Source: Owenia fusiformis (lineage: Eukaryota; Annelida; Polychaeta; Sabellida; Oweniidae). Taken from it: a DNA stretch of 64,000 nucleotides. The stretch lies in assembly GCA_903813345.2 (NCBI GenBank), contig CAIIXF020000005.1, forward strand, positions 1,860,001-1,924,000, given 5' to 3'. Within the stretch, counting starts at the first letter, position 1. Each line of letters begins with the position of its first letter. The notes beneath the pieces are model-generated. The model did not search any database and had not been told where the DNA came from. It saw nothing but the letters and a program-made list of their open reading frames with translations. The translations under genes and the position numbers were made by a program. Shown one piece after another: positions 4,301 through 43,800 of the stretch.

Positions 4301-4451
4301 GCATTGTTCAATAATAACAATGTGAATAAAAAAAGTTTCAAAAATATAACCGGAAGTTAGAATGCCGCTTGAACATGAACAAATTAGCGAAGTCCCCATT
4401 TGTTATTGCTGCAACGACAAAAAGAAAAAGTGCTTCCGAATCAAAATTTCG
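4301..4451. promoter_or_regulatory. Shared bidirectional promoter / 5' UTR interval of FBH1 and ANKRD16
   Basis: Only about 150 bp separate the chosen start codons of the two divergent genes, so both transcription starts and any core promoter must lie here or inside the first exons. No TATA box or CpG-rich block is evident by eye. An alternative ANKRD16 Met at 4362 would shrink the gap to 61 bp. Confidence 0.6.
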
Positions 4452-16742
<12,291 letters not shown>

Positions 16743-18289: not shown

Positions 18290-19074
18290 CTACGCTTTGG
18301 CGTTGCCGTTGTTCTGGTTATATTTTACCTGATAATGCAGTACATATGTTCATTTCAAAATATCTTTATACTAATGAATAGATGCAATATGGAATTTAGT
18401 GTGGAGAAATTATTTTCTCATATTTGACCTAATTTGAACTTATTAATTCAGAGAGCAATGATGACCAGTATTTACTTATTCATGACATCTGACCTCTGAC
18501 AGGAATATTTGATTAGTATGGAATTCCATCAATTTATCTCTCGTATTGTCAAATAAAAGTAATTACATACTGAAATATTAATGGTGATGTCTACGTCTTA
18601 TACCACATGTCTAAATAATTTATTTTGTTGCGAGTCTCTTGGGTCCTTATAGAATGGAGTATCTATACTTTCTTTAATTAAATTATCTGTGTTCTTATTG
18701 CTTTTGAATCTTTATGATAGACACGAGATATAAGTAAACAGCGAGCTCAAATGTAAGGTTTATGTTTTTGAAGTATAGTGCTATGTTTATCATCACACAC
18801 AGGTGATTGGCTCTGGAGGAATTCAAGTCAGAATAAAACCCGTCAAGTTGGATATAATGCATATTTATGCAAGGTGAAAAATGAAAAGTCAGCATGACTA
18901 GGATTCATTATATCACGTCAGTGTTATTACTGGATTAACGTTATGAAAATATAAGAAAAGGAAGGAATAATGGATATATGATGAAACATGGAGACCAAGA
19001 AAGGCTGATGATATAATTAATATTTTGTTACAATTATAATTATTGAAGAGAAGTGGTGGATTTGTAATATTATC
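18290..19074. other. Upstream region of the lectin/EB gene
   Basis: AT-rich, no gene or clear promoter motif seen; any 5' UTR and promoter of the plus-strand gene should lie here. Confidence 0.4.
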
Positions 19075-19888: not shown

Positions 19889-22800
19889 GTGAGTAATTTG
19901 GTTTTACCAGAATAAGTGAGTAATGTTTATTGTATCTTCATTTTGATTGATATTAAAGCATTACAAAACATGCAAAGTTTAATACATACAGCAGTAAGAG
20001 TATTAAAGAAAAATATTGTTCATGAAGAAACCTTTGTCATTTCCAAAATTATTGTCATGCCTCACACACTTGTCCGTCTGTCTCTCCATTATCAATAGAA
20101 ATATATTTGTATTATTATATTCTAGACTTCCATTGTGATTTTGAGGATGATAGTATTTGTGAATTCACTAACTCGGATTTGGATGAATTGGATTGGACAT
20201 TGACCACAGGACCGGGTTCGTATGTGAACAATGGGACTGGACCACAGACAGACAATAGGTTAGTGTCACCTGGCTAGAAGTTTAATTTTTTATTTATATA
20301 TGTTGTCACCACAACAAGTGGTGGCATATTGTTATAGTAGCCAACTTTTGTGTGGACAATGTTTGGTGGTTGGCAGTCATTGTCTAAGGTGGTGTCATTT
20401 TGCATATTAATGCCTTGTGTCACTTTTACACAATTATTGCTCATTTCAAAAATCAGAATTAGGCTCATAGGCTTTAATAATAGACCTTACATAATAGGTT
20501 TGAATAATTAATGTTCTGAGGTTATTCCAGTGAGGGCTGATGAACCTTATCTGGGGTTGAATAATATGTTTCATAACATCGTTATTGGTAATGTTACATA
20601 CATGTTAAAATAACTGACACCAAGCTGATAAACGTGACTAGTATTTCCATTGTTGTAGGGTCGAAGGAGCAATGCTCTGTACTCATTTGTCTGGTTCTAG
20701 TACTTCTATTGTTTAAATCTCTCTATTCATTCCAGTGGATCAGGGTCTTACATGTTAATGATCAGCCATGAAGCACAGAAAGGTGACAGAGCCCAACTGG
20801 TGTCACCCCTGATGAAAGTACATCGCCCTGTACCCATATGCCTTAAGTTCTGCTATTATTTATAGCCCTCTATTCATTCCAGTGGATCAGGATCATACAT
20901 GTTAATGATCAGCCATGAAGCACAGAAGGTGACAAGGCCCAACTAGTGTCACCGCTGATGAAAGTACATCGCCCTGTACCCATATGCCTTAAGTTCTGCT
21001 ATTATTTATAGCCCTCTATTCATTCCAGTGGATCAGGGTCTTACATGTTAATGATCAGCCATGAAGCACAGAAAGGTGACAAGGCCCAACTGGTGTCACC
21101 CCTGATGAAAGTACATCGCCCTGTACCCATATGCCTTAAGTTCTGCTATTATTTATAGCCCTCTATTCATTCGAGTGGATCAGGATCATACATGTTAATG
21201 ATCAGCCATGAAGCACAGAAAGGTGACAAGGCCCAACTGGTGTCACCCCTGATGAAAGTACATCGCCCTGTACCCATATGCCTTAAGTTCTGCTATTATT
21301 TATAGCCCTCTATTCATTCCAGTGGATCAGGATCATACATGTTAATGATCAGCCATGAAGCACAGAAAGGTGACAAGGCCCAACTGGTGTCACCCCTGAT
21401 GAAAGTACATCGCCCTGTACCCATATGCCTTAAGTTCTGCTATTATTTATAGCCCTCTATTCATTCCAGTGGATCAGGATCATACATGTTAATGATCAGC
21501 CATGAAGCACAGAAAGGTGACAAGGCCCAACTGGTGTCACCCCTGATGAAAGTACATCGCCCTGTACCCATATGCCTTAAGTTCTGCTATTATTTATAGC
21601 CCTCTATTCATTCCAGTGGATCAGGATCATACATGTTAATGATCAGCCATGAAGCACAGAAAGGTGACAAGGCCCAACTGGTGACACCCCTGATGAAAGT
21701 ACATCGCCCTGTACCCATATGCCTTAAGTTCTGCTATTATATATAGCCCTCTATTCATTCCAGTGGATCAGGATCATACATGTTAATGATCAGCCATGAA
21801 GCACAGAAAGGTGACAAGGCCCAACTGGTGTCACCCCTGATGAAAGTTCATCGCCCTGTTCCCATATGCCTTAAGTTCTGGTACCACATGTTCTCTAGCA
21901 AGGATTGGGATATGGGCTACCTGAGTGTCTATTTAGAGCTAGAGACAGACCCAGGTACACTTAGACTGCTCTGGACTGAGGCTACTGCACAGGGAGAAAG
22001 GTACTCATACTCTATGTTGCCACTTTTTCACTTCCTCTGACCCTGAAAATGGATTGCAGATTTTGGAACTCTTTATCTAAATTATGAATGTTTCATACTG
22101 ATACCTATATTTATGACTGAACAGTTCATTTTGACTTGGTAATCTTACTTGTGTGCCATTTTGCTAGATTTTACTTAACAAATGTCTAACTTTTTGATCT
22201 CTAGATGGGTACCAGGTCAGACCATGTTGAGTGCAGGCGAGAACTTCCGTCTTGTGTTTGAAGGTGTCCGAGGTGACTCCTTTAGATCAGATATAGGACT
22301 AGATGATATCTCAATGACCATTGGCCGCTGTAATTTAACAGGTGAATATATTTTGTTTACGTTGACTTTCTAGATCTTCGCACAAAGATTTCTGAGTTTC
22401 TGAAACTAATTCTTCCTGTGCAATATGTTAATGATCAGTTGTTGACTTGGTGACTAAAAAATACCTATGAAGCATAGGAAATGACTTTAAGACTAACCTA
22501 TTAACTACTTTGTGAAATATTTGGACCTCAGTAAGTTTTTGCAGTGGTTGTGATTCTTCAAAGAAGCCTAAACCTCACCTAAGAACATTGGAATAATTAC
22601 CCAGGATTAAGTTTATTAATATATGTGTTAAATATATGACATATTGTTATGATCTCCAACTTTTTGTGGATAGTGCTTGGCGTCCGACAGTTGGTGTTTG
22701 GTGGTTAGTGTTCAGTGGTAGGCATTCAGCGTCTGTAAAAAATAGCAGGTGGTGACATTTTGCATGTTAATGCCTTGTATATACATTCTATTTTCCTTTT

Positions 22801-25800
22801 ATTTCAGCATGTCAAGACAGGTGGACTCAGTATGGGCTTCACTGCTATAAGTACTTTGATGAACTGAACTTTGCTCGCACCCAGTGGGAAGCACACAAGG
22901 ATTGTGAGAACAGGGACGGGGGACTTGTAAGTGTGTTGAGCCAGGCAGAACAGAACTTTGTACAGTCTCATGTTGCTTCAGGGTAAGTTATGTGAGAACA
23001 GGGACGGGGGACTTGTAAGTGTGTTGAGCCAGGCAGAACAGAACTTTGTACAGTCTCATGTAGCTTCAGGGTAAGTTGTGTGAGAACAGGGACGGGGGAC
23101 TTGTAAGTGTGTTGAGCCAGGCAGAACAGAACTTTGTACAGTCTCATGTTGCTTCAGGGTAAGTTGTGTGAGAACAGGGACGGGGGACTTGTAAGTGTGT
23201 TGAGCCAGGCAGAACAGAACTTCGTACAGTCTCATGTAGCTTCAGGGTAAGTTGTGTTAGAACAGGGACGGGGGACTTGTAAGTGTGTTGAGCCAGGCAG
23301 AACAGAACTTTGTACAGTCTCATGTTGCTTCAGGGTAAGTTGTGTGAAAACAGGGACGGGGGACTTGTAAGTGTGTTGAGCCAGGCAGAACAGAACTTTG
23401 TACAGTCTCATGTAGCTTCAGGGTAAGTTGTGTGAGAACAGGGATGGGGGACTTGTAAGTGTGTTGAGCCAGGCAGAACAGAACTTTGTACAGTCTCATG
23501 TTGCTTCAGGGTAAGTTATGTGAGAACAGGGACGGGGGACTTGTAAGTGTGTTGAGCCAGGCAGAACAGAACTTTGTACAGTCTCATGTTGCTTCAGGGT
23601 AAGTTGTGTGAGAACAGGGACGAGGGACTTGTAAGTGAGTTGAGCCAGGCAGAACAGAACTTTGTACAGTCTCATGTTGCTTCAGGGTAAGAAGTTGTGT
23701 GAGAACAGGGACGGGGGACTTGTGTGTTGAGCCAGGCAGAACAGAACTTTGTACAGTCTCATGTTGCTTCAGGGTAAGTTGTGTGAAAACAGGGATGGGG
23801 GACTTGTGAGTGTGTTGAGCCAGGCAGAACAGAACTTTGTACAGTCTCATGTAGCTTCAGGGTAAGTTGTGTTAGAACAGGGACGGGGGACTTGTAAGTG
23901 TGTTGAGCCAGGCGGAACAGAACTTTGTACAGTCTCATGTTGCTTCGGGGTAAGTGTTGTTATTATCCCATTGGAATCAAGTTGAATTGCATGATGAAAA
24001 ACAATATGTAAATCTACAAAAGATTGCTACTACCAATCACCTACTAGTATTATAGTTATTAAAACAATGAAATAAAGTCTGATATATACCAACATTCATG
24101 ATTGAAAACTAGGATTCTGCAAGACTGTGAATAGCATTATAATTTGGAAAAAGCTAAGAGACATTTTTCTCAATGTTATTTACTTTATTCCTTATTTCAT
24201 ATCTTTTGATTAATAGGTAAATTAGAATGTAAGCAGAACCAATTATATTTGTACTGGTGGATATGTTAACGTGTATATTTATAGTTATTCAGTACTTAGT
24301 AATTAGAGATATGTGTTCATAATAAATTACAAGGAATGAATTGACACTGTTTAATGACACCTTCATCATGCTTTATAACTAATTTATTGTCATTTGTAAC
24401 TACTATGTCCTTGCTATTACTGATAAGCCATGTATTTTATGAAGTGGAGGTCTCCACTACCAGTGCCAACCAATAGGTCACCATTATGATCAATGGCAAC
24501 TGCAGCTGGGCGCCCTGCATTGTCCTCTGGGGTTAGGAGGTACTTGATAAACTTCCCAGTGGGATCCAACATGTGGATTCTGCTGTTACCATTGTCAGCT
24601 ATGAAGATGTTGTCAAGTGAGTCAGTGCAGACACCAAATGGTTGATGGAGTTGATTATTGCCACTACCCTTTGTGCCATAGGTGTTTAGAAGGTCTCCCT
24701 TCCTGTTGAACATTTTTACACTGTGTCCTCCTTCATCTGATACAATGACTGCATATTTGCTGTTAGTTGTGAGAAATCTTGGTTTCTCTAATACACCATC
24801 ACCTATTGTACCCAGTATTGAACCATTATTGCAGTCAACAATGTACACACATTTGACTGCAAAGTCAGTGACCAACAGTTCACCTTTAGAATTCATACAT
24901 AAACGATGTGGATGTTTGAAAGTGCCAATGTTTCTCTTGTGCACCAAGTTTTGATTGTAAATAGCCACACATTTGTTCGTTAGATCACATATGGCATAAC
25001 AATTGTCTTTGGTAGTACACACTCCAACTGAGTTGATCTCCTTTGTTGACTTTTTATTCAATGATCTAGGATTGATTTCATAAGTCACAAACTTAGGCTT
25101 ATTCTCAGGATATTCAACCACTAATATATTTTGATTCTCACCCACACATATATCCTGTATGGCACATGATTCACTCTTCTTATCTACCAAATGCTCAGTT
25201 CTGTGTAAGTTTGGCATACATAGTTTTGGACTTTCCTTACATTGTAAAGATGTCGCTGAAGCTTTAACACTTGCCTTATCAGTAGATGTCACAATGTGTC
25301 CTAGTTGAGATATGTCCAAGTGACCAGGTTTGTATGTACCAATGTCAAGAGATTTGTCTTGATGTTCAGAGTCCACCCTTAAAGGCATTGAACTCCAATC
25401 TTGTAGTGTTTGTTTGATATCAGCACTTGAGTTAACTATCTCAACAGGATGTCCATGTTTTTGTAGTGACATCAGATGAAGTAATGTACTTTCAGTGATG
25501 CCCTTCTTTAGCTCTATATCGGTCCTTCGAGATTCAACTTGCTTCAAGGTGTTATTATGTGCTTCCTTAGCATCCCTTTCTTGTTTATTAAAGTACTTGT
25601 CAAGTTCACTTTGCATAGCTCTGCGATCTGATTTTATTGAACTGAGAAGTTTTTGGAGCTTTTGCCCTTGGGTTTCAGTCAAGTTATCTGAGATTTTGAG
25701 TTGCTTTTCAAGTAAATTTTTCCTTTGGATGGCTAATCCAATCAATGCAGACACATTGCGTATTTCTTCCTTTGCCACATCTTCAATTTTCACACATGAA

Positions 25801-28800
25801 TGCCCAGAATGATCAGTAATACAACAGTCTCTACATACAATGGCTTTGTCAGTCTTACAGTAGAACTTCAGGGGTTGGTCGCTGTGCTCGGTGCAATCAA
25901 TATTTCTTTGAACCAGACAGTCTATAGCAATCTTTGAATCTTTCTCAGTATCTCCAGTCAATTTAACATGCTTGTGAGATTTCGAGGATCTCATCCTACC
26001 ATGAGATTTGTCGCAAGTGTTGCATAAATATTCGGCACATTCGATACATCTGGCTACAGCATGTGTATGTTGGTCATCCTGTACACAGATGTCACAGTTT
26101 ATGCTAGATTCATTCAATTGTTTCTTGGTTCTCTCCAGGGCTTCAGCCATTGACTTCATGGTGAAGTTAGTCCTATATGAGTTTGCACCTCCATTTGGGA
26201 TGTCTGTGTCACACTTGCATACTGGACATGGATAGTTCTTTTTCCTGCTGTCTTTTTCAGTTTGAATCCATTCATCTAAGCATCCTTCACAGAATGAATG
26301 TAGGCATTTTAGAGACTTTGGTGTCTTTACTGTGTCTAGACATATAGGACACATTAACAGTTCAGTATATTCCTCGATAAATGATTTAGCAGCTGCCATT
26401 TCTTAGCCTATATATTTTAAAGCTGACTACACTTACAAACTACACTCTTTTTGCTTATAACACAACATCAATCAATACCATTGAATAAAGAATATGCACA
26501 GTGTAAAGCATTGAAAAAAGAATATGCATGTATCAGAAAATCAATAATTTTAAGTGTTTGTACTTTGTACACACTGGGGAGCAAATCAAAATCTAAGTGT
26601 TTAATAAGTTTAAAAGAATAAAAGATCAGGCATGTGACATCCATATGACTCTCTTTCATCAATTTTGAAAGAAAAACTCTGGGAAATAATTTGGAAGATA
26701 CAGTCTGAATAACATTTTTAAAAAGGGAAAAAATTAACTTTTTGAATTCACCCCGAGAATTTATCTTGATAAACGTTTAAATCAATCAGTATACAGCAAC
26801 CAATGCCATCTTTTATATGGACACATGATATTTCTTACAGACAGAAGTGTGAAAGAAACTATAGTAATATAGTACTTCATGTAAAAACAGATCATTTAGT
26901 TTGGGTCAATTATGTCACCACCAAAAGTGGTGACATATTGTTATGGTCTCCGTTTTTTTGCGACGGCGTCCGGCGGTTGGCGTCCGGCGTCTGTAACAAT
27001 TTCTTACAACTTCCTATAACTTAACAAATACTGTTTAGACTGACTTCAATTTTTTTCTAAATCATCTACTTGTTCTCAGAAGTTCAAATCTGACTTTAGA
27101 TTTGACATTTGACCTTCAATGACCTTCTCAAGGTCAAAAAGGTCTTTTTTCAACTTGCTTCACATTGACTAATTTTTTTTTCAAAATCATCTACATGTTC
27201 TCAGAAATTCAAATCTGACTTTAGATTTGACATTTGACCTTCAAATCTGACTTTAGATTTGACATTTGACCTTCAATGACCTTCTCAAGGTCAAAAAAGG
27301 TCAAAAAGGTCTGTTTTCAACTTGCTTCAAATTGACTAAAAAAAATTTTCAAAGTCATATACTTGTTCTCAGAAATTCAAATCTGACTTTAGATTTGACT
27401 TAAGATTTGACATTTGACCTTCAATGACCTTCTCAAAGTCAAAAAAGGTCAAAAAGGTCTTTTTTCAACTTGCTTCAAATTGACTAAATTTTTTTTTCAA
27501 AATCATCTACATGTTCTCAGAAATTCAAATCTGACTTTAGATTTGACATTTGACCTTCAATGACCTTCTCAATGTCAAAAAAGGTCAAAAAGGTATTTTT
27601 TCATCTTGCTTCAAATTGACTAATTTTTTTTTTCAAAATCATCTACATGTTCTCAGAAATTCAAATATGACTTTAGATTTGACATTTGACCTTCAATGAC
27701 CTTCTCAAGGTCAAAAAGGGTCAAAAAGGTCTTTTTTCAACTTGCTTCAAATTGACTAATTTTTTTTTTCAAAATCATCTACATGTTCTCAGAAATTCAA
27801 ATCTGACTTTAGATTTGACATTTGACCTTTAATGACCTTCTCAAGGTCAAAAAAGGTCAAAAAGGTCTGTTTTCAACTTGCTTCGAATTGACCAAATTTT
27901 TTTTCAAAATCATCTACATCTTTTCAGAAGTTCAAATTTGACTTTACAAGTTCTCAGAAGTTCAAATCTGACTTTAGATTTGACCTTTGACCTTCAATGA
28001 CCTTCTCAAGGTCAAAAAGGTCTTTTTTCAACTTGCTTCAAATTGACTAATTTTTTTTTCAAAATCATCTACATGTTCTCAGAAGTTCAAATCTGACTTT
28101 AGATTTGACATTTGACCTTCAATGACCTTTTCAAGGTCAAAAAGGTCTTTTTTCAACTTGCTTCAAATTTACTTAATTTTTTTTTCAAAATCATCTACAT
28201 GTTCTCAGAAGTTCAAATCTGACTTTACATTTGACATTTGACCTTCAATGACCTTCTCAATGTCAAAAAAAGTCAAAGAGGTATTTTTTCAACTTGCTTC
28301 AGATTGAATAATTTCTTTTTTCAAAATCATCTACAAGATCCCAGAAGCTCAAATCTTCAAAAACCTTCTTAAGGTCAAAAGGTATTTTCCAACTTGCTTT
28401 AAATTGACCAAATTGTTTTAGGTGGTGACATTTTGTCATGTTAATGCCTTGTTAATATTGCTACCATTACATTTTCATTTTCAGATGTACAACAAAATAG
28501 AAACCTTGTATACACAAATTTTTTCATACATGTACTAGATATAGTACTTTGTGTGGTTCCAGGTGACTTTGATCTGATAGCAATACTTTCCTACCAAGTA
28601 TTTATTTACAATATGTTTAACACATTTGATTCATGTGGTTCCAGATGACTTTGGTCTGATAGCAATACTTCCCCCTATTCATTATGCCTATTGTACCTAC
28701 CAAGCATTTATTTACAATATGTTTAACACATTTAATTCATGTGGTTCAAGATGACTTTGGTCTGATAGCAATACTTCCCCCTATTCATTATGCCTATTGT

Positions 28801-31800
28801 ACCTACCAAGTATTTATTTACAATATGTTTAACACATGTAATTCATGTGGTTCCAGGTGGCTTGGACTGAACTACAGCGACCCTCGATGGACTTGGTCTG
28901 ATGGTTCCTACTATCATTACTCCAACTGGCACCAAGAGCAGGGATCAGGTATATCTATTGAAATGAAGCTCAAGATTCAATATACAGGGGTGGGGGCAAA
29001 AAACATCCATATTTTTATTTTTGTAATATCTTTGCTGATATTTTGAGAATATCCATAAATTATATATCATTAGAAACATGTCAAAATAAAAAGGGTATTT
29101 TTGTTATCAGTGGTAAAATATGATATTTTTGTAAGTGTAAACATCGCCAGATCGTTGGAAAATTCGAATTAAAATCACTTTATTTCCGACGATTCGGATG
29201 TTGACTTTAACTATGGAATAAAAATAACATCCTATGATTTACTCGTGATATGATTTTAATCCATTCATGGATATTGATATCTACAGGTATCATATCCATT
29301 TGGGATAAAAATCATATTACTCATAAATCATAGGATATCCTCTATATATCACATGGCTTAATCAACACTTTTAGGCTTTTACATATAAAGAAAAAGTATT
29401 GGAGTTGAGTTTTATTGTTTGTAAGTCATTTTATAGCTGAATATAACCTATTTTTATGCATTGTAGTCCATTATAAAGTTAGATTGATTGATACATTGAT
29501 ATTTGCTTCAAACACGTTTCTCAAAGTAACTCAGTTGAAATTTTGCCATAACCCATAATATGGAATAAATTTCTATTATTTCCACTTCTGGTGTCTATAA
29601 TTACATTGTTTGTAATTTAAAATGTCAGATAAGTTAAATTATATAAGAACAACATCATTATTGCCAATTTCATGATAATTTCAGCCTTAAATCCGCATTG
29701 TGTCCAAAATGTCTTGAAAATTGAGTAAATGTTCAACTATTTGATACAGACTTCACTACATTATTTAGGCTATATTACTGATTACCAATACCTATCAAAA
29801 TGGCAAAAGAACTCAATAATATTGCATTTGTAAATCAATTTAATTTCATATCATCATAAATCAACAATTGTGACTTTCTATAATTGGAATTATATCCCCA
29901 AAGCTGACATAGGAGTTCTATCTGTCTGGTCAATTCTTAGCATTTGTATTCAGCAATTGGTTAATCAAGATTTGACCCCTTGTACACCTGTGGTAATTGA
30001 AATTATATTTTAAGACGAATACTCCTTTATATGAAATGAATTATATATCATTTTGTTGGAAATTGAATTGTCTTTCCATTGATATATGGCATATACATTT
30101 GTGTGTAATATCTAAACCTCAAAATCAGGATATGGTTGATCATGCATGTATTTTAGGATAATTTCTCTCAGTATTATCTCAAGTCAAATGGTTTGCACAT
30201 ATGATTACTAGGTTCATGTGCTTGTATGCTGGGATCAAAGGAAGAATATAAGTGGAGGAAGTTTCCTTGTAGTGATCTGAACTCATACTTCTGCAAGAAA
30301 AATGCAGGTAAGGTCTACAGTTGCATTTATTGTTCTTTATCATTCTGATCTCCCTTCCAACAATTTTGTTCCAAATAATGGGAAGCAAGTAGATTGTGTT
30401 TCGAGGATCTCAAAGGGAATGATTATCAGCTGACAACAATTGGTTGAACACAGCCCAATGGCTTCTGCATAACCTTCCCATAAATACATACTGTTCATAC
30501 CTATATAACCTTTAAGTATATTTTCAGACAAGGATGAATGCTACAACTCTCCCTGTGGCCATGGTGGGACTTGTGTGGACATAATTCCTGGATTCTTCTG
30601 TGCCTGCCCTGTGGGGTTCACTGGCAAGACATGTGAAACAAAGAGTGGTACATGAACTTTATCTGTGTTTATGACAAAATTGCTTACTTATTGTTACTAT
30701 CAGATTGTTGGTGGTTTCCACATTCTGTATTGTGGTCTGCAATAATTTAGTATACTCTGTTCACAGTAAGATTCTATCAAAACTTTCAAAATCCTAAAGC
30801 ATCCAGGTCTGTTACATTAAATTCAAATTATAGTTCACTTTGAATTTGGACTGTATAACATTCAAGGTTGATGATGAAAAAATCCTCAAAACCTTTCTTT
30901 TATTTTCTATACATGAAATCATTATTATTATTATTTTTACCAAGCTTCATTAAAAATGCAGCAAACATCAGAAAATGGATGTCTTCATTGTATTGTACTC
31001 AACAGTGTGCTTATTGTGCTTTCTAGGTCAAGAGATTCTTGTTATTGATGGAAAGCCATGGCTTGGGGTTGAAGACAAATACCTAAAGAAACACAACCAC
31101 AAGAACATCTCCCCTTTGACCTTGGAGGAGTGTCTGGAACGCTGTCGAACTCACACTGAGTTTGAATGCATTTCTGTGGACTACAATGAAGCGAACAGTA
31201 CATGCATCTTGAGTAAAGCAGATCGGAAAGTTGCACCTTTGCTGCCGGAACAGAAATGGAATTACTTTGAAGTGAGATCGGGTGAGTACACCGTTACCAG
31301 ACTGACCGTTACCATAGCAGAAATGGAATTACTTTGAAGTTAGATCGGGTGAGTACACCGTTACCAGACTGACCGTTACCATAGCAGAAATGGAATTACT
31401 TTGAAGTTAGATCGGGTGAGTACACCGTTACCAGACTGACCATTACCATAGCAGAAATGGAATTACTTTGAAGTTAGATCGGGTGAGTACACCGTTACCA
31501 GACTGACCGTTACCATAGCAGAAATGGAATTACTTTGAAGTGAGATCGGGTGAGTACACCGTTACCGTAGCAGAAATGGAATTACATGTACTTTGAAGTG
31601 ATATCGGATGAGTGTGCAATCAAGCTAGTTTTTTGTCATGAAGAAGTTGTATCTTATTGTTATATGTAGACTTCATTTTTGGGATTGGCTTTCTGCAAAG
31701 ATGGTTGGTGTCTGTAACAAATTGCCTCTAACCATTTTTGTCATGTACAATCCTTTGTTTTTTCATTTTATTAATTTTGCAATATTTAAATATTTACAGA

Positions 31801-34800
31801 TAAAACTAGACATTTTCACTATGTTTGTTAATTTCTCGAAATCTGTGTGATATTGTAAAAGGTTTTCTGAGATTTACACTTCTTAGATTCTTCATCTCCT
31901 TTGCTACATGTCGGCCAGTCTCAATTTGCTCATGTTGGCAGGAAACAGTTTTTCATTTTCATGAACACATTAAATATTAAACAATATCACAATGCTCCAG
32001 TCTTTCATACAATTCAGTGATGAGTCATAAGAATGTTTCACTTGCTCAGATAAGCGTCCTGATAATACCTCACTAAATTATGAAAATACCATACCATTCA
32101 AGAACAATCTTATCCCACAAAAGTCATGCAACCATCATGCTAAAAAAGTAATAACCTAAAACTTGAGTGTATTGTTGATTTATTAATAAATGCACAATCT
32201 GACTGAATTACATATTATTATGACTGGTTCATGGTGAGACCAGCACTTCAGAGAATCAAGATATCATGAATTTTATTCTAATGCAGTATTTTTCATAAAT
32301 GATTCATTAGCATGTCATGTTTGAAGACTGTAACATGTTACTGTACATGTATACTGTCATAATTTCTCTTGTGAAAGATTTTATTTTAGATTGGGTGATT
32401 TAAATTTACTTGACAGTTATTTAAGAATTTTGTCTATTTAAAGATTGATAAACCAAAATAATCAGTGATATTGGCCCTTGTTCACCACAATAATCATTAA
32501 ATCTTAGTGGGGCTACAGTATGTAACATTATTTTACTTTCTTAACAATACATTGTAGCACATCATTATCCTATATAAAAAAATTTTGACTTCACCAAACA
32601 CCCATCTATCAATGTTTATAAAACTACATGTCGGCCAGTCTCAATTTGCTCATGTTGGCAGGAAACAGTTTTTCATTTTCATGAACACATTAAATATTAA
32701 ACAATATCACAATGCTCCAGTCTTTCATACAATTCAGTGATGAGTCATAAGAATGTTTCACTTGCTCAGATAAGCGTCCTGATAATACCTCACTAAATTA
32801 TGAAAATACCATACCATTCAAGAACAATCTTATCCCACAAAAGTCATGCAACCATCATGCTAAAAAAGTAATAACCTAAAACTTGAGTGTATTGTTGATT
32901 TATTAATAAATGCACAATCTGACTGAATTACATATTATTATGACTGGTTCATGGTGAGACCAGCACTTCAGAGAATCAAGATATCATGAATTTTATTCTA
33001 ATGCAGTATTTTTCATAAATGATTCATTAGCATGTCATGTTTGAAGACTGTAACATGTTACTGTACATGTATACTGTCATAATTTCTCTTGTGAAAGATT
33101 TTATTTTAGATTGGGTGATTTAAATTTACTTGACAGTTATTTAAGAATTTTGTCTATTTAAAGATTGATAAACCAAAATAATCAGTGATATTGGCCCTTG
33201 TTCACCACAATAATCATTAAATCTTAGTGGGGCTACAGTATGTAACATTATTTTACTTTCTTAACAATACATTGTAGCACATCATTATCCTATATAAAAA
33301 AATTTTGACTTCACCAAACACCCATCTATCAATGTTTATAAAACTACATGTCGGCCAGTCTCAATTTGCTCATGTTGGCAGGAAACAGTTTTTCATTTTC
33401 ATGAACACATTAAATATTAAACAATATCACAATGCTCCAGTCTTTCATACAATTCAGTGATGAGTCATAAGAATGTTTCACTTGCTCAGATAAGCGTCCT
33501 GATAATACCTCACTAAATTATGAAAATACCATACCATTCAAGAACAATCTTATCCCACAAAAGTCATGCAACCATCATGCTAAAAAAGTAATAACCTAAA
33601 ACTTGAGTGTATTGTTGATTTATTAATAAATGCACAATCTGACTGAATTACATATTATTATGACTGGTTCATGGTGAGACCAGCACTTCAGAGAATCAAG
33701 ATATCATGAATTTTATTCTAATGCAGTATTTTTCATAAATGATTCATTAGCATGTCATGTTTGAAGACTGTAACATGTTACTGTACATGTATACTGTCAT
33801 AATTTCTCTTGTGAAAGATTTTATTTTAGATTGGGTGATTTAAATTTACTTGACAGTTATTTAAGAATTTTGTCTATTTAAAGATTGATAAACCAAAATA
33901 ATCAGTGATATTGGCCCTTGTTCACCACAATAATCATTAAATCTTAGTGGGGCTACAGTATGTAACATTATTTTACTTTCTTAACAATACATTGTAGCAC
34001 ATCATTATCCTATATAAAAAAATTTTGACTTCACCAAACACCCATCTATCAATGTTTATAAAACTTGCAAAAATCGCAAAAACAGATATCTTCACACTTG
34101 CAATTTTAGAGAACCTCAGACCACCCAGACACCAATGGAAAGTAATGTTGTGTCAAATCTAGTGTGGAACATATAAGACATCCCCTTATATGTATACTAT
34201 TCATTTCAGTGCTAGGGGCCAATTGTAGCTCAGCCCCTAATATATATACTATTCATTTCAGTGCTAGGGGCCAATTGTAGCTCAGACCCAGATGTTTGTG
34301 TTAAGAATGACAACAACAGTATATGTGGAGATGACCAGTTATGTGTTTGTAAACAGGGATACTTTGAATTCAATGAAAATTGCACAAAGTGTAAGTATTA
34401 ACATCTATATGTAGTATTAAATTATTTAATGGTTGTGATTTCAGTTATTCTGATGCGTGGGTCACACATACAGTACTTATTTTGAAACAATACAAATTGC
34501 ATGTAATTCATATCTTTTATTTTTGTTAGTGCTTGGACTTGACTGTTCTGATGAAGAGTATTTATGTGGAGCCATAGATGAGTTCAGTGAATGTACCAAA
34601 TTCATGCAGTGCTACTGTAAACCAGGATTTTTTCCCCAGGATGATATTTGTGTACAGTGTAAGCATAAGCTAGTTATTTCAATACTTTATAATTACTGTA
34701 AAATGCAACATTTTTTGTGAATCAGGATGAGACCAAACATTAAAAAATGTTCATAGTAAGAAGCTCTAGCACAGATTCACAGGCTGGTATCGAAATATTT

Positions 34801-37800
34801 GTCCGCTGTGACGGAGCATGCTATTTTTCATAAAAACACTAAGAATACTTCACGATTTATTTTTTAACTCATACGTTTCGTTATACCACACAAAATTACT
34901 TACTCCATGCAATGGATATATCATTTGCGGGTAACTTTCACTTCTGTTTGAAGTCCAATTACGCTGGGAAGAAAAGCTATTGAAAATGGCGCCGGAGTAT
35001 CATACTTCAAAATGTACCATTTCTTGTTTAACTTTCTAATGGCACGATATAGTGACACGATAATATTTACACATGGTTCAAGCATAACTATGAAGGTGTA
35101 AATGAGATGTTGATGTATCTGGTCTTTTTAATTCTTTTATAAAAAATAATGTTTAATTTTTTTGTCCGCTGTGACGGAGCAGTTGCAAATGTGAACTGTG
35201 AAAATGCTCCGTCACAGCGGACAAAAAATATTAATATTATTTTTTATAAAAAAAATTAAAAAGACCCAATGCATTAATATATCATTAATACATTCAGAGT
35301 TATGCTGAAAACATATGTTAATATTATCGTGTCACTATATCATGCCATTAATTAGTTAAAAAAGAAATGGTACATTTTAGAGTTTGATACTCTGGCGCCG
35401 TTTTCAATAGATTTTACTCCTAGCGTTATTGGACTTCAAACAGAAGTGAAGGTTACACGCAAATGATATATCCATTGCATGGAGAAAGTAATTATCTTTG
35501 ATATAACGAAACATATGAGTTAAAAAATAAATTGTGAAGCATTTTTAGTGTTTTTATGAAAAATAGCATGCTCCGTCACAGCGGACAAATCTTTCGATAC
35601 CAGCCTGTGAGATTTAAGTCACAATACACACTTGTTGTTTTATTTGGGTGTCTCAAAAATGTGTCTATCTCAAAATCCTCACTTTGACCCTATAGGTCTC
35701 AATATACATAGTGCACTGATTAATTACTATAATCTCCATTAAATAACCAAAATGAAATAGAAAATCTGATTGTTTGCTATTTTATCTCCAGTGCTTGGTT
35801 CAGCATGCTCTACCAATGCAGAATGCACTGCTGTGGACCAGCACAGTGAATGTGGCACAGAAGGAACATGTGTATGTCTGCCTAGCTATGTCAACTCAGG
35901 ATCCATGTGTGTAACACGTAAGTACATTGCTAGTCAATTTACCAAGTGTCAATTATGGGTTTTTGAAGGATGAGGCTACGCTGTGACAATAGGTGACTCT
36001 ATGAGACATCTACAGCTCTGCTGGGGGAGTTCATTGTGGCTATAATGATTTAGTTATAGCAGGGAATTTGAAAAAATTGAACTTTGAATCTGCATTTCTG
36101 CATTTTATGTCACCACAAGAAGTGATGACATATGGTTATAGTCTCCAACTTTATTGTGGATAGTTCGGCAGTTGGTGTTTATAACAAATTGCAGGTGGTG
36201 ACATTTCGTATGTTAATGTCTAGTCTACACTTGTGTTCCAGTGGTTGGGGCAGCATGCAGCCTTAAGCCAACTATGTGTGAAGAGGGAGATATCAACAGT
36301 GAATGTGTCAATGATGTGTGCAGCTGCAAGGCTGGCTATTTTACAGTAGATTTGAAATGTGTGCCAGGTAAGATAATATGCTACATTGTCTAAGACGAGG
36401 ACTGCATGTTTTCTCATGTTTTAAGTCATTATATTTTAGCTGGAAAAAATGATTCTGAATTACATTATTGAACATTTTTTAATGGCTCTCACCTTGTGTA
36501 TCATGTATCAAGGGTGTGCCATGTGCCATAGTATGAAACAATGCAATGGCTAAGTAGCAATCTTTTATAACCAGTGAACAATCTCCACAATCTATCTGTC
36601 AGTTTCAAAGGACAAGTCTCCGTTTGGAGTACAGTCTCCTGAGCTAATACTTTCTTTATGAAAAATATAGAAATATCACCCAAATTAAAGAATTCAAAAG
36701 AGGACATTCTGTAAAAATATCAAAATTGTCCAATGCAGGCATAACATGCAGTAGACTGATGAACTTTGTTCTCTAAACCGAGACTAGTCTTTTCCCGCCA
36801 TCATTTTTGCTTTAAGGCTCACTTTATTGATCATTAAGGAGGCACTTTGTCTGCTCATAAATATTTACTGGGAAAAATATTTATTTGGAATTGATAGACT
36901 GAGAAGATAGCAGCCCATCTCCATTTTATGTATTGCAGTGATGGGCTATGACTGCTCTGGTAACTCAAGTATATGTGAGATGTTTGATGAGAACAGTGAA
37001 TGTAGAGAAGGGACCTGTCAATGTAAACCAACAACACATCTTATCCTTGGTGTATGCAGCACACGTAAGTTATTTTCTGTAGAATATTGAGTTGAGTTGC
37101 AGGTATGATTTTCTTACTAATGTGTCATTTACTGCTTAAATATAAGGTCTCAAAATGATATAAAGTAAATTTAGATATTAAAAGATTTACAATATAGAAT
37201 CTGAAATCGCCTGTTGATGAATGTTAATTATAAAACAGTTAGTGTATTGTGTTGATTATTTGATTATCATTTTTACTGACATAATTTCCCTTAAATTTTC
37301 TAATTCTTTAGTAGTAGGCGATTATTCATTCGTTTGATTTGATTGCATACCTCTATTGAATAAAATATATCAATAAGATGTATCAGAAAACACAAAAACA
37401 ACAAAGGTAAGCGTCTGGCTTAGGGTAATTAGCTGGTTTGGCAGTTTGAGTTTTAAGCTTGGCATGTCAACCTGACAAATTAGGTCTCAATCAGTCAGTG
37501 ACATCATGTAAGCTTACTCACGGCAGGATGCTGAAGATTATCTTTTTGAGAATCAGTTAATTGAGTATTAAGAATCTTAATCGATTAAACTTTTGTCGAT
37601 CAATTAATCGATGATCGATTAAAAATTCACACCTCTAGTTGATGCTCTGCAATGAAATGTACATTTCCATTATTCTTTGTTCAGGGATGTATTGGTCAGT
37701 TTGTGTTTCACTAATATTGACCATGTCTTGCAGTTCTAGAAGCAAAATGTGACCAAGACCCTGGCATCTGTGTGATCCTAAATGAGAACAGCACTTGTGT

Positions 37801-40800
37801 GGATGGTGTCTGCCAGTGTAAGGTTGGCTATATAGGAATCAATGATGTCTGTTTCACTAATATTGACTGTGTTCTGTAGTTCTAGAAGCAAAATGTGACC
37901 AAGACCCTGGCATCTGTGTGATCCTAAATGAGAACAGTACTTGTGTGGATGGTGTCTGCCAGTGTAAAGTTGGATATATAGGAATCAATGATGCCTGTAT
38001 ACTCAGTAAGTACTTGGCAAATATGCTATCTTAAAGAACAATCTAGAAAAGCTTTATTCAAAATAAAGCAACAATATCACAAGTTTAATGACATTCCCAT
38101 ATCCGTTGCCTTACATTTATTTGATTCACTTGTCCAACCAATTTTGATGTATGGTTCAGAAATATGGTCAAGTAAAAAACATATCAAGTAACTGGAAACT
38201 ATTCACCTGTCCTTTTTAAAAAGCATCCTTGGTGTGAAAACATCAACTGCAACCCTTGCAGTCTATGGAGAGCTGGGTCGTTTTCCACTTAGTTTGTGCT
38301 TTGATATTCATCTTATTAAATATTGGATACGGCTTATACAACTTTGTCCAGATAACCTCCTTTATAAAGCATATCTATATGATTATGAAATGTACAGTTT
38401 AGGATTTAAAAATACTTGGTCAAGTAAGGTTCATAATATTTTAAAAGATTGTAATCTCCAAAGCACTTGGAATGAACAAGTTGTTGAGGATGACTATGTA
38501 TTTAAAAATAACCTAACTAAAATATTGTACCAAAATTATAAGGAGAAATGGAAGTGTGATTTACAATTATACCCAGTTTTAAGAACATACATTAAATTCA
38601 AAACAACTTTTGAAAGAGAACAATATTTAAGCCTTCAAAACAAAAATCACAGGCAATCAATTTCACAACTGAGATTAAGTTCACATAAATTACAAATAGA
38701 ACTGGGTAGACATGTAAAACCACGGCCAAAACCTGAATATGAAAGATTATGTAACTTTTGTGGGGAAATAGAAAATGAGGTTCATTTCATGATTAAATGC
38801 CATTTACATAGAGAAAATAGAAAAATATTGTTTGACAACATCACTAGCAAAATTAATGTTGATCAACATGATCCTGAAAATACATTCATTATGTTAATAT
38901 CTTCAAAAGATAAATATGTGCAAAAGCAAGTTGGAAGTTTTATTACAAAATCATTCAAAAACTTAAACTTGCCTGGAGATTAACATTTTGGATGCATCAC
39001 ACCTAAAGTATATTATAACATATATGTAAATAACAAGTTTTTTGTATAAATTGTATATATTAGTGTAGTGTAGTGTAGTTTTGTGAAATTTCATTTTGTA
39101 ATGACTAATATGTCAGGTCATGACATCTAAAGAGTCAATAAAAGATATATATACTAATGTTTTATGATTTTTAAGATTGAGAACCAATACCTAGTCGTAG
39201 ACACCCATTTTCTAGTGTCTAGTTATATACACATAATCAGGTGTCTGATATTGCTAGTAATATATTGTCTCTAGGAATGTTACTCTATGGTACTTAATTG
39301 TACACGTACCTTTTCAGTATCAATGGTATCCTTTAATGGTATGTGTTATGTTTTAGCCTCTGAGGTTGACTGCTCCATGCGTCCAGGTCTATGCACAGAG
39401 GGAGATGTGAACAGTGTTTGCGAGGAAGGCAGCTGTGTTTGCCTGCCTGGGTACTTTGGCTCTAAAGATGGTTGTAAATCAGGTAACCTCATCATTTATC
39501 AAATCCATCTACAGCATACAGAAACTTCTACATGTATAGATATAGTTTGTATGCTTGTTGTAATGTTGTATTTAACGATACTAAATAGTGAAACGAAAAG
39601 TGCATCCAGTTTTAGCCGGTTTATGAGAGACAGCACTACCACAGGTTATAATATTAAATACTGCATGTGGGGAATTCGAGTCAATGACTTCATCATGGCC
39701 AACAACAGGATCAGTGTTACCAAGCTATGGTCACCGGTCACACCATTTCTTCTGCCTTATTGTATCTATTGTTAAATGATGGTTTATGTTTTAGTGTACA
39801 AAGCAGACTGTAGTTTGGATTCTGGGATATGTGAGCGATATGATGTTAACAGTGAATGTAGGGTGCAGTCTGGACAGTCTCGCTGTCTATGTAAAGGCAT
39901 ACTAGTACACATCAATGGAAAATGCCAGTCATGTAAGTTCTTATTAGATAAGTTCACATACTAGGCATCTGCGATGAGTAAACTATACAGTGGTAAAATA
40001 AGTTTATTGTGCCATAATGGTATTGAAAACTATGGATACTCCCTGAAAATTAAATCTTAACTATGAAATAGTGTTTTTGCTTAATTATTGATACTTTACA
40101 GGATATACAATATACAGTGTTTGTACAATGCTATCTTACTAAAGCTGCAAGTGGGAATTGCATGATAGTATTCCATGTTGTAGTGATAGGAGCTACATGT
40201 ATCCCAGGGACTGTACCAGATGAAATGTAGTTATTATGATGAATTCACATCTTGCCATGTACATAGGAAGACCTGCCACTCATGTTAATGCCTTGTATTC
40301 CATGTTGTAGTGATAGGAGCTACATGTATCCCAGGGACTGTACCAGATGAGTGTAGTTATTATGATGAATTCACATCTTGCCATGTACATAGGAAGACCT
40401 GCCACTCATGTTAATGCCTTGTATTCCATGTTGTAGTGATAGGAGCTACATGTATCCCAGGGACTGTACCAGATGAGTGTAGTTATTATGATGAATTCAC
40501 ATCTTGCCATGTACATAGGAAGACCTGCCACTCATGTTAATGCCTTGTATTCCATGTTGTAGTGATAGGAGCTACATGTATCCCAGGGACTGTACCAGAT
40601 GAGTGTAGTTATTATGATGAATTCACATCTTGCCATGTACATAGGAAGACCTGCCACTCATGTTAATGCCTTGTATTCCATGTTGTAGTGATAGGAGCTA
40701 CATGTATCCCAGGGACTGTACCAGATGAGTGTAGTTATTATGATGAATTCACATCTTGCCATGTACATAGGAAGACCTGCCACTCATGTTAATGCCTTGT

Positions 40801-43800
40801 ATTCCATGTTGTAGTGATAGGAGCTACATGTATCCCAGGGACTGTACCAGATGAGTGTCGTTATTATGATGAATTCACATCTTGCCATGTACATAGGAAG
40901 ACCTGCCACTCATGTTAATGCCTTGTATTCCATGTTGTAGTGATAGGAGCTACATGTATCCCAGGGACTGTACCAGATGAGTGTAGTTATTATGATGAAT
41001 TCACATCTTGCCATGTACATAGGAAGACCTGCCACTCATGTTAATGCCTTGTATTTCATGTTGTAGTGATAGGAGCTACATGTATCCCAGGGACTGTACC
41101 AGATGAGTGTAGTTATTATGATGAATTCACGTCTTGCCATGTACATAGGAAGACCTGCCAGTGTGTGCCACATTACTATCTCAGTGGGGATTACTGTATG
41201 CCAGGTAACATATAAAATGAATTTATTGAGTTTGAATTGATTTGAAGATACCGATGTCTGTAGCAAGATTGCATTATGATCATGTTCTACTTGTTTTGTA
41301 TTTATTTGGGCAATCTCCTAGCATTTCATCCAGTGCAGTTAGAACTCCTAACCTCTGCAGATTCTTGATTGCACTGTGATTTCTTGAAAGTTCATCAATT
41401 ATATGTTGTTATATCTTTGGAGATATTTCTCTATAAAAAATACTGATACAATTGTACATGTAAACTATACATCAGGTTGAAAATTCATGGATCTTTATCA
41501 ACATGTAAATGAAATAAAGAAATGATGTGTTTTTAAAAAAAAATAATAATATAAAAATGTTGTCATAACAAAGGAAAATTCATTGGAAGAAATCACTTGT
41601 GTGATTCAAACTCCCAATGTGCAAGAAAAAATATGTACAAGTAATTTCTTATGGAGACTTTGTTACCTGGGAATAAATGAATTAAGGATCTGCAGAGAGA
41701 AAGAAGAAACACACTGAACAATCCTGCTTGGAGAATGTTTACTCTGACCATAATATCTTCAGTTGTTTTAATCTTTTGATCCAAATCTAATCTTACTGTA
41801 AAGGAGTTATAATTTAATGTATTGAGCATGCATTATTCTGCTATTGATGATTTTATTTTGTTTTACATTAATTTTGTTAAGGTGGATTGTTTTGACTATA
41901 TACATACCAGTGATCTCCCCTGGATTTTTCTCAAGTGGGTGCAAAATTCTCATTTTTTCAATTCTGACCGAATTTGGTCAAAATATGCCAATTTTTAACG
42001 ATTTATCTCATTTTCAAGTGTGTGCAAATGGATTTTCAGGTGGGTGCTGCGCCCACTTGCTTTAATGGGCTGGTGGGGAGACCACTGCATACATGTATCT
42101 GGTTTGTAAGAGTGTATGCAAACTTTGATGAACAAAATTTTCTATAAGTTACTATTTATTTCTGATTTTTGTTAATATTTATTTTCTTATTTGATTCTGT
42201 GTTTTCATTGCAATCAGTGTGTTTGAATAATTTTTAATTAATAATGAATCGTTAACTGGAAAACTCAACCCTTAGACAACTCATTCCTAGACACCTTATC
42301 TCTTAGACAACTCATCCCTAGACAACTCATCTCTAGACAACTCATCCCTGGACAACTCAACTCCTAGACAACTCATCCCTAGACAACTCATCCCCTAGAC
42401 AACTCATCCCTAGACAACTCATCCCCTGGACAACTCATCCCTAGACAACTCATCCCTAGACACCTTATCTCTAGACAACTCATCTCTAGACAACTCATCC
42501 CTAGACAACTCATCCCTAGACACATCATCTCTAGACAACTTATCCCTAGACAACTCATCCCCTGGACAACTCATCCCTAGACAACTCATCCCTAAACACC
42601 TTATCTCTAGACAACTCATCTCTAGACAACTCATCCCTAGACAACTCATCTCTAGACAACTCATCTTTAGACAATTCATCCCTAGACAACTCATCCCCTG
42701 GACAACTCATCTCTAGACAACTCATCTCTAGACAACTTATTCCTAGACAACTCATCCCCTAGACAACTCATCCCTAGACAACTCATCTCTGGACAACTCA
42801 TCTTTAGACAACTCATCCCTAGACAACTCATCCCCTAAACAACTCATCCCTAGACAACTCATCCCCTGGACAACTCATCTCTAGACAACTCATCCCTAGA
42901 CAACTCATCCCCTGGACAACTCATCTCTAGACAACTCATCTCTAGACAACTTATTCCTAGACAACTCATCCCCTAGACAACTCATCCCTAGACAACTCAT
43001 CTCTGGACAACTCATCTTTAGACAACTCATCCCTAGACAACTCATCCCCTAAACAACTCATCCCTAGACAACTCATCCCCTGGACAACTCATCTCTAGAC
43101 AACTCATCCCTAGACAACTCATCCCCTGGACAACTCATCCCTATACAACTCATCCCTAGACACCTTATCTCTAGACAACTCATCCCTAGACAACTCATCC
43201 CTAGACACATCATCTCTAGACAACTTATCCCTAGACAACTCATCCCCTGGACAACTCATCCCTAGACAACTCATCCCCTAGACAACTCATATCTAGACAA
43301 CTCATCCCTAGACAACTCATCCCTAGACACACCATCTCTAGACAACTTATCCCTAGACAACTCATTCCCTGGACAACTCATCCATAGACAACTCATCCCC
43401 TAGACAACTCATCCCTAGTCAACTCATCCTTTTCCACATACTCTCTCGAACAATCTTGGGTCTAAAGCACAATCAAACTATGAAAAGTAAACAAAATATG
43501 AGATCAACGAAACTTTATCAATGGTAATATAATATAGAATATCAAGAATGAACTATAATTTTACAAGGTTCTTCTTAAATGTACAAGATTCTTCTATAAT
43601 CTAGAAGATTTTCCTTTGATTTACAAGATTCTTATTCAGTTCTAATCTACTTTATGATTGTTCTTCTTTTACAGAGCTAGATAGTAAGAAAGTGTATTTC
43701 TGTTTTAATTTTATTCTCTTACAATTCCTACTTTTTGCAACTTTTGCAGTTGTATTTTTCCAAAGCTCAGTTGAAAATATAGTGCTTTATATTGTGTCAT

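What the first reader, a model, noticed from the sequence alone, without database searches (positions are those of the whole stretch)
20719..41204. At least seven exon edges of one gene amplified in tandem together with their splice site
In the MAM/lectin/EB gene, tandem arrays straddle exon-intron borders at exon 4 (8 x 147 bp, acceptor), exon 6 (12 x 88 bp, donor), exon 7 (4 x about 106 bp, acceptor), exon 10 (6 x 67 bp, donor), exon 11 (2 x about 55 bp, acceptor), exon 16 (2 x 146 bp, acceptor) and exon 19 (8 x 126 bp, acceptor). Unit sequences are unrelated, so this is not one satellite; what recurs is the position at a splice junction. No array was seen inside the TRIM, FBH1 or ANKRD16 exons. 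A process that favours exon edges in this gene, or selection for multiple splice-site copies, would be new.
Basis: seen in the sequence. Interest (0 to 1): 0.85.

Follow-up and report, generated by a model that had tools for sequence, protein, structure and literature searches.

The report
Splice-junction minisatellites ("mirages") in an annelid
In a marine-worm gene, seven exon edges have each been copied in tandem together with their splice site; the same kind of array, already known from amphioxus as "mirages", also turns up in other genes of this genome, so it looks like ordinary DNA amplification left by selection where it does least harm, although this gene holds unusually many.

Summary
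Seven arrays sit at seven splice junctions of one open gene (MAM, C-type lectin, EGF, EB modules). In this gene 7 of 8 arrays with 40-300 bp units cross an exon edge; 1.5 were expected (P about 5e-5). The kind is not new: repeats over exon-intron borders are published in amphioxus ("mirages") and in human segmental duplications. The host here is a spiralian, very probably the annelid Owenia fusiformis. Five more mirages turned up elsewhere in its genome (up to 39 copies, 5 kb), including a kinesin and a MAP2K-like kinase gene. In a rule-based sample 3 of 344 presumed exon edges had one, against 7 of 46 here, so this gene is a hotspot. Units are mostly exon (median 78%). In 10 of 12 arrays, use of an extra splice site would break the frame. 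Best reading: exon-rich DNA amplifies, selection removes most exon-internal events, and survivors carry one edge whose extra copies lie in the intron. Selection for many splice sites is not supported, though pooled substitutions in extra copies favour third codon positions, so constraint is not excluded. Open: why exon-rich DNA, why this gene. No RNA or long-read test was possible.

The parts
20699..21880 (+). 8 x 147 bp array over the acceptor of exon 4 (117 exon bp + 30 intron bp per unit); last copy is the working exon edge
   Evidence: TRF; junction copies; anatomy
21764..22000 (+). exon 4 (MAM), working copy
   Evidence: gene model
22808..22982 (+). exon 6 (C-type lectin), working copy
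   Evidence: gene model; Pfam
22903..23955 (+). 12 x 88 bp array over the donor of exon 6 (80 exon + 8 intron bp per unit); first copy works
28563..28870 (+). 4-copy degenerate array (82, 106, 106 bp spacing; start given is the first junction) over the acceptor of exon 7; exon-like part is a gapped match to exon 7
   Evidence: (TRF 28590-28870)
28857..28948 (+). exon 7, working copy
31027..31281 (+). exon 10, working copy (no Pfam family)
31251..31614 (+). 6-copy 67 bp array over the donor of exon 10 (31 exon + 36 intron bp); first copy works; the last, diverged copy (beyond TRF's end at 31566) has lost GT
34182..34289 (+). 2 x 52 bp over the acceptor of exon 11; 4 bp of shared sequence at the breakpoints
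34262..34390 (+). exon 11 (EB module), working copy
37704..37998 (+). 2 x 146 bp over the acceptor of exon 16; unit covers 119 of 126 exon bp and stops short of the donor; 3 bp shared at breakpoints
37880..38005 (+). exon 16 (EB module), working copy
40168..41160 (+). 8 x 126 bp array over the acceptor of exon 19 (94 exon + 32 intron bp); last copy works
41067..41204 (+). exon 19 (EB module), working copy
20126..47781 (+). host gene as modelled, exons 3 to 25 (MAM, C-type lectin, EGF, one unassigned exon, EB modules); first and last exons not established

Best explanation
These are mirage-type minisatellites. A short tandem duplication arises in or near an exon and is expanded and homogenised by slippage or unequal exchange. 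A duplication wholly inside an exon damages the protein unless it is in frame and tolerated, so it is usually lost. One that takes in exactly one splice site is tolerated: the true exon stays intact at the outer end of the array (last copy for an acceptor, first copy for a donor) and every extra copy falls in the intron. Splicing can ignore the extra copies because only the true copy lies within one exon length of the opposite splice site (exon definition). Shown: the anatomy, the open frame, the excess at edges in this gene, the exon-rich units, the same arrays in other genes. Inferred: the expansion mechanism, the selective filter and the splicing choice.
For: (1) Each of the 12 arrays examined contains one splice-site type and leaves one intact exon copy. 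(2) Units are mostly exon: median exon fraction 0.78, 10 of 12 above one half, intron part 6-36 bp in 11 of 12 (KS against uniform P = 0.012, Wilcoxon P = 0.042). (3) No frame constraint: 5 of 12 periods are multiples of 3, whereas the arrays I placed inside open frames (24/48 and 36 bp in the window, 63 bp at C3) keep the frame. (4) Splice dinucleotides of extra copies are not significantly protected by column. (5) Use of an extra splice site gives a stop or frameshift in 10 of 12. (6) Generality: C11 91 bp x 20.8 acceptor, C11 75 bp x 13.6 donor, C3 127 bp x 39 donor, kinesin 159 bp x 17.9 acceptor, MAP2K-like kinase 54 bp x 3.9 donor. (7) The two two-copy arrays share 4 and 3 bp at their breakpoints. 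(8) Amphioxus mirages are reported not to disturb regular splicing.
Against: A filter acting on duplications placed at random cannot raise edges above introns; it needs exon-rich DNA to amplify more often, which I infer from unit composition and did not measure directly. Outside this gene the excess at edges is weak: 3 of 5 arrays within 350 bp of 172 sampled exons, P = 0.04. It is a matter of longer units only: of 23 arrays with periods of 12-39 bp in the 100-exon sample, 2 lie inside a hit, 2 touch a hit start by 3 bases, 1 begins at a donor, the rest lie outside. Among extra copies, substitutions summed by codon position are 71, 78 and 136 (7 of 9 arrays), biased to third positions (naive P about 2e-6); shared variants are counted many times and by column the bias is not significant (28, 27, 38; P = 0.30), but constraint or conversion from the true exon is not excluded. 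It does not explain why this gene has about 17 times the sampled edge rate. Two arrays (C11 75 bp; kinase 54 bp) would stay open if extra splice sites were used. Exon 7's unit has only 7 bp of ungapped exon match.
Confidence: 0.65

Rival explanations
1. Selection keeps many copies of a splice site, for backup splicing or for protein diversity in a surface, immune-type gene.
For: 41 of 42 junction copies in this gene keep AG or GT. Across nine arrays 1 of 234 dinucleotide positions differs from the array consensus against about 3% elsewhere (naive P = 0.011; copies more than 25% diverged were dropped, among them the exon 10 copy that has lost GT). Pooled substitutions in extra copies favour third codon positions (71, 78, 136). 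The C11 75 bp donor array is open in frame through its copies. In human segmental duplications repeats at exon-intron boundaries can alter splicing.
Against: Counted by column, which allows for shared ancestry of copies, the dinucleotides are not special (P = 0.15) and codon positions do not differ (P = 0.30). Ten of 12 arrays give stops or frameshifts if an extra site is used. The arrays also sit in kinesin and MAP2K-like kinase genes.
Confidence: 0.12
2. The mutational process is aimed at splice sites themselves (for example through transcription, R-loops or RNA-templated repair), rather than at exons.
For: In this gene 7 of 8 arrays of 40-300 bp period include a splice site.
Against: A splice-centred process predicts units balanced about the junction; they are skewed to exon (median 0.78). 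In-frame arrays inside open frames exist where the protein tolerates them.
Confidence: 0.12
3. Assembly artefact: single copies expanded by misassembly of long reads.
For: The intronic 720 bp repeat is three exact copies, which is suspicious. One published amphioxus mirage was aberrantly assembled in the draft genome.
Against: Neighbouring copies in the window's junction arrays differ by 1-7%. Arrays of the same kind occur at independent loci. The amphioxus papers cite RT-PCR and re-sequencing in support of theirs.
Confidence: 0.05
4. The arrays are satellites carried in by transposable elements.
For: Some arrays in the window look element-borne (27240-28356 lies between repeat ends seen elsewhere in the window; read by eye). 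The exon 19 unit contains 16 bp resembling such a repeat end (by eye).
Against: Units of the edge arrays consist mostly of the local exon. The 6.9 kb query over exons 11-19 listed, beside itself, two transposon-like segments and one 46-base match, and no second copy of those arrays (only 40 of 4739 candidates were scored).
Confidence: 0.03

Closest known systems
Amphioxus 'mirage' minisatellites (Adh3, globins BflGb6 and BflGb9, PGBD5, TnC; PMC3087553 and PMC3902484, passages read)
   Same: Minisatellite-like tandem duplication of exon-intron borders, at both 5' and 3' edges; similar unit lengths; many copies keep AG or GT; the gene's own edge is one copy of the array
   Different: Different phylum (spiralian, very probably Owenia fusiformis); seven in one gene; up to 39 copies and 5 kb (C3); units measured here as mostly exon; no RNA or haplotype data here
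Variable internal tandem repeats at exon-intron boundaries of human genes in segmental duplications (PMC2812944, passages read)
   Same: Minisatellites located at exon-intron boundaries of genes, expanded recently
   Different: There the repeats average 30 bp units and about 4 copies and are linked to novel introns and altered splicing between paralogs; here larger arrays enlarge introns of the present gene model
Intron gain by tandem duplication of AG/GT segments (Rogers model, as cited in PMC3087553)
   Same: Tandem duplication that copies splice sites inside a gene
   Different: I saw no sign that an array made a new intron inside an exon among the 12, but had no relative's gene structure to test it
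Mutually exclusive or duplicated exons
   Same: Tandem copies of exon sequence in introns
   Different: Copies here hold only one edge of the exon, so they cannot be spliced as complete exons

Membership tests
mirage minisatellites | tandem repeat unit spans an exon-intron border | tested here: met
   seven arrays in the window, five elsewhere; exon 7 only as a degenerate match
mirage minisatellites | both acceptor and donor borders can be affected | tested here: met
   7 acceptor and 5 donor arrays among 12
mirage minisatellites | many, not necessarily all, copies keep AG or GT | tested here: met
   41 of 42 junction copies in the window gene
mirage minisatellites | gene is still spliced normally | not testable with these tools
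   only an intact open frame through the outer copies; no RNA data
mirage minisatellites | copy number varies between haplotypes or somatically | not testable with these tools
   one assembly; two DNA queries of the locus listed no second copy of the gene, in capped lists
intron gain by tandem duplication | a new intron appears inside a formerly continuous exon | tested here: inconclusive
   in the window the arrays lie in introns of the present gene model; without a relative's gene structure I cannot say when each intron arose
mutually exclusive exons | each copy has its own acceptor and donor | tested here: not met
   units carry one splice-site type each; the exon 16 unit stops short of the donor

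The most novel reading that the evidence does not exclude
In this genome exon DNA is itself a hotspot for tandem amplification, well above introns, and the single-edge arrays are the visible remainder after selection; some genes, such as this one, are strong hotspots, and a few arrays (C11, 75 bp, 13 in-frame donors) have become a way to make proteins with variable numbers of repeats by choice of donor.
Probability: 0.3. Interest if true: 0.7.

Novelty: new member of a known kind. Interest (0 to 1): 0.45.

Why it matters
In the papers I could search, arrays called mirages were described only in amphioxus, with a related class in human segmental duplications. Finding them in a spiralian, with seven in one gene and others in a kinesin and a kinase gene, suggests they are either widespread and overlooked or have arisen more than once. 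Each array is a natural test of exon definition: up to 39 near-identical splice sites of which, by reading frame, usually only the outer one can be used. They are also raw material for the proposed route of intron gain by tandem duplication. A genome-wide count would be new information.

Tried and rejected
Organism: no cox1 match in the assembly. I then fetched 12 homeobox stretches of the C1 Hox cluster; 11 passed my motif filter, with Lox5-, Lox2/Lox4- and Post-type homeodomains among them (type names recalled), so a spiralian. Species is therefore an inference.

Transposon satellites: rejected for the edge arrays. Protection of splice dinucleotides: suggestive per cell, not significant per column, so not claimed. 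Exon against intron divergence among extra copies: 2.8% against 4.1% (naive P = 0.002), probably driven by T-run variation in two arrays, so not claimed as constraint. Rows dropped: copies more than 25% diverged (one each in the exon 4, 10 and 19 arrays, one in exon 7), and arrays with under three kept copies (exons 7, 11, 16); the codon count also leaves out the C11 75 bp and kinase arrays. A kinase pair at C10:2256896 that looked like a two-copy mirage proved to be two complete diverged exons. A homeobox pair at C6:27596062 showed no relevant array. A Helicase_C pair at C4:29162068 is a 2 x 181 bp repeat in a helicase-like stretch whose frames are broken; I could not place it at an exon edge and did not count it. 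By eye, beyond these and the kinesin run, I saw no runs spaced under 500 bp in the Helicase_C, Lectin_C, kinase and TCP1 lists, and only irregular spacing in the myosin list; the lists are capped and this look has low sensitivity. Paper searches for such arrays outside amphioxus gave the human segmental-duplication paper (passages) and no other that I recognised from the listings; the library lacks most subscription papers, and the 2002 Adh paper was not read.

Full report
What is there. The window lies at C5:1860001-1924000 of a 498 Mb assembly. On the + strand a gene runs from at least 20126 to 47781. Pfam finds MAM, C-type lectin, EGF and EB modules in the first 804 residues; an HMM built from this gene's own EB exons matches e11 to e25 (they match by construction). 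The first and last exons were not established. TRF finds a tandem array over the acceptors of e4, e7, e11, e16 and e19 and over the donors of e6 and e10.

Which copy works. The open frame needs the last copy of each acceptor array and the first copy of each donor array. All extra copies therefore lie in the intron. 41 of 42 junction copies in this gene keep AG or GT; the exception is the last copy of the exon 10 array.

More than chance in this gene. I collapsed every array to one unit, placed units of the same length at random along the gene, excluded placements wholly inside exons, and counted those crossing an edge by at least 5 bp. Of 8 arrays with periods of 40-300 bp and score at least 150, 7 cross an edge; 1.54 were expected; P = 4.8e-5. 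With the 720 bp intron repeat added, 7 of 9, P = 8e-4. The thresholds were chosen after seeing the arrays and the gene was handed to me because it looked striking, so these values flatter the case.

The rest of the genome. The MAM and EB family searches gave 140 and 33 exon hits, in capped lists. Reading 90 kb of MAM- and EB-rich stretches gave three more mirages: 91 bp x 20.8 over an EB acceptor and 75 bp x 13.6 over an EB-type donor on C11, and 127 bp x 39 (nearly 5 kb) over a MAM donor on C3. The C11 pieces were fetched after loci from them had shown arrays; the C3 and C7 pieces were unseen, part of the C6 piece had been seen without arrays, and C6 and C7 held no array with a period of 40 bp or more. 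In the kinesin hit list, 18 hits to one end of the motor domain lie 159 bp apart; the DNA shows an acceptor mirage of 17.9 copies. I then took the first 25 hits with frames under 160 residues and no stops from each of four lists (kinesin, Helicase_C, Lectin_C, kinase; picked by hand) and fetched each with 350 bp on each side. One of these 100, a MAP2K-like kinase exon (name by recall), has a 54 bp x 3.9 donor mirage. A 39 bp array in another kinesin exon's intron begins at the GT itself and was not counted, nor was a 37 bp array that abuts an EB exon.

Rates. Pooling those 100 hits with 47 MAM hits in the C3, C6 and C7 stretches and 25 of the 28 family loci (3 dropped as duplicates) gives 172 hits and 344 hit ends, taken as edges. 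Not every hit end was checked to be a splice site, and some hits lie in long frames, so true edges are somewhat fewer. Three arrays with a period of at least 40 bp cross an edge and two lie in introns within 350 bp; P for 3 of 5 or more is 0.04. This excludes the kinesin array, which lies 492 bp from the sampled exon, and a 37 bp array that TRF there reports with a period of 155. The window gene has 7 of 46 edges against 3 of 344 (Fisher P = 2e-5). So mirages are scattered through the sampled genes at roughly 1% of edges, and this gene is a hotspot. Outside this gene the excess of edges over introns is only suggestive, and arrays with periods of 12-39 bp do not favour edges: of 23 in the 100-exon sample, 2 lie inside a hit, 2 touch a hit start by 3 bases and 1 begins at a donor.

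Anatomy of 12 arrays. The unit is mostly exon: median exon fraction 0.78, 10 of 12 above one half; the intron part is 6 to 36 bp in 11 of 12. Against a uniform split the KS test gives P = 0.012 and the Wilcoxon test 0.042; leaving out the degenerate exon 7, Wilcoxon gives 0.002. In the window gene exons are 45% GC and introns 34%. Five of 12 periods are multiples of 3, about what chance gives. By contrast the arrays inside Thr-rich open frames in the window (54159-54261; 59932-61274) and at C3 (63 bp) keep the frame. Among extra copies of nine arrays, 1 of 18 splice-dinucleotide columns varies against 161 of 916 others (P = 0.15). Variable exon columns fall 28, 27 and 38 on the three codon positions (P = 0.30), but substitutions summed over copies fall 71, 78 and 136 (7 of the 9 arrays). 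The sum counts shared variants many times, so I do not claim constraint, but I cannot exclude it. If an extra splice site were used, 10 of 12 arrays would give a stop or a frameshift; the C11 75 bp array and the kinase array would stay open. The two-copy arrays at exons 11 and 16 share 4 and 3 bp at their breakpoints.

How it most likely works. Shown: the arrays, the intact outer copy, the exon-rich units, the presence in several genes. Inferred: short tandem duplications arise more often in exon-rich DNA, perhaps because it is richer in GC; duplications wholly inside an exon are mostly lost unless in frame; those including one splice site survive because the extra copies become intron; slippage or unequal exchange then expands them. 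Splicing ignores the extra copies because none has the opposite splice site within an exon's length (exon definition). The exon 16 unit, which covers 119 of 126 exon bases yet stops short of the donor, fits this.

What is known. [quoted passage not shown] it says the mechanism is unclear. The PGBD5 paper (PMC3902484, one passage read) adds PGBD5 and TnC. A human study (PMC2812944, passages read) reports variable minisatellites at exon-intron boundaries of genes in segmental duplications, with units of about 30 bp, linked to novel introns. My other searches showed no further case that I recognised. The present arrays meet every feature of mirages that could be tested. The host is a spiralian by its Hox genes (type names recalled) and very probably Owenia fusiformis by size, chromosome number and Hox location.

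Verdict. The interpretation as a new process is not: it is a known kind of structure in another phylum, unusually dense in one gene. What deserves follow-up is the exon bias of the units and the hotspot.

Noticed in passing
window 31904-34065: Intronic 720 bp repeat in three exact copies (1442 bases identical at offset 720): a very recent triplication or an assembly error.
   Followed up: partly
window 38018-39153: A repeat of about 1.1 kb with a 263-residue open frame (no Pfam hit) starts about a dozen bases after the exon 16 donor; at least 20 other near full-length places at 96-100% identity (capped list).
   Followed up: partly
window 34777-35610: An 833 bp palindromic (foldback) element in the intron after exon 12; its relatives match on both strands, at 97-98% and 87-88% identity.
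   Followed up: no
L031 (C11:22066001-22076000) 3940-4960: A 75 bp donor mirage whose copies stay open in the exon's frame and would add 25 residues each if later donors were used: a possible variable-length protein.
   Followed up: partly
window 54159-54261 and 59932-61274: In-frame tandem repeats inside open frames rich in Thr and Pro (periods 24/48 and 36/72/108 bp).
   Followed up: no
L150 (C10:2256600-2257600): Two complete, diverged copies of one kinase exon (hits start 178 bp apart), each with its own acceptor and donor, as in mutually exclusive exons.
   Followed up: partly
G000 C9:37986009-37994334: Some eleven irregularly spaced hits to the same segment (about 25-84) of the myosin head profile, looking like a cluster of mutually exclusive myosin exons.
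   Followed up: no
G000 C11:23278065-23282466: Three Lectin_C hits to the same profile segment lie about 2.09 kb apart on one strand, probably a tandem duplication of a whole exon or gene.
   Followed up: no
L152 (C4:29161850-29162700) 221-582: A 2 x 181 bp tandem repeat (89% matches) inside a helicase-like stretch with broken frames.
   Followed up: partly
window 18787-18898: Possible last exon of a separate C-type lectin-like gene just upstream (reading GDWLWRNSSQ...YLCKVKNEKSA and a stop), seen by eye.
   Followed up: no
window 46077-46333 and 42262-43429: An 18 bp x 14 array starting 20 bp after the exon 22 donor, and a 15 bp x 77 array in the intron after exon 19.
   Followed up: no
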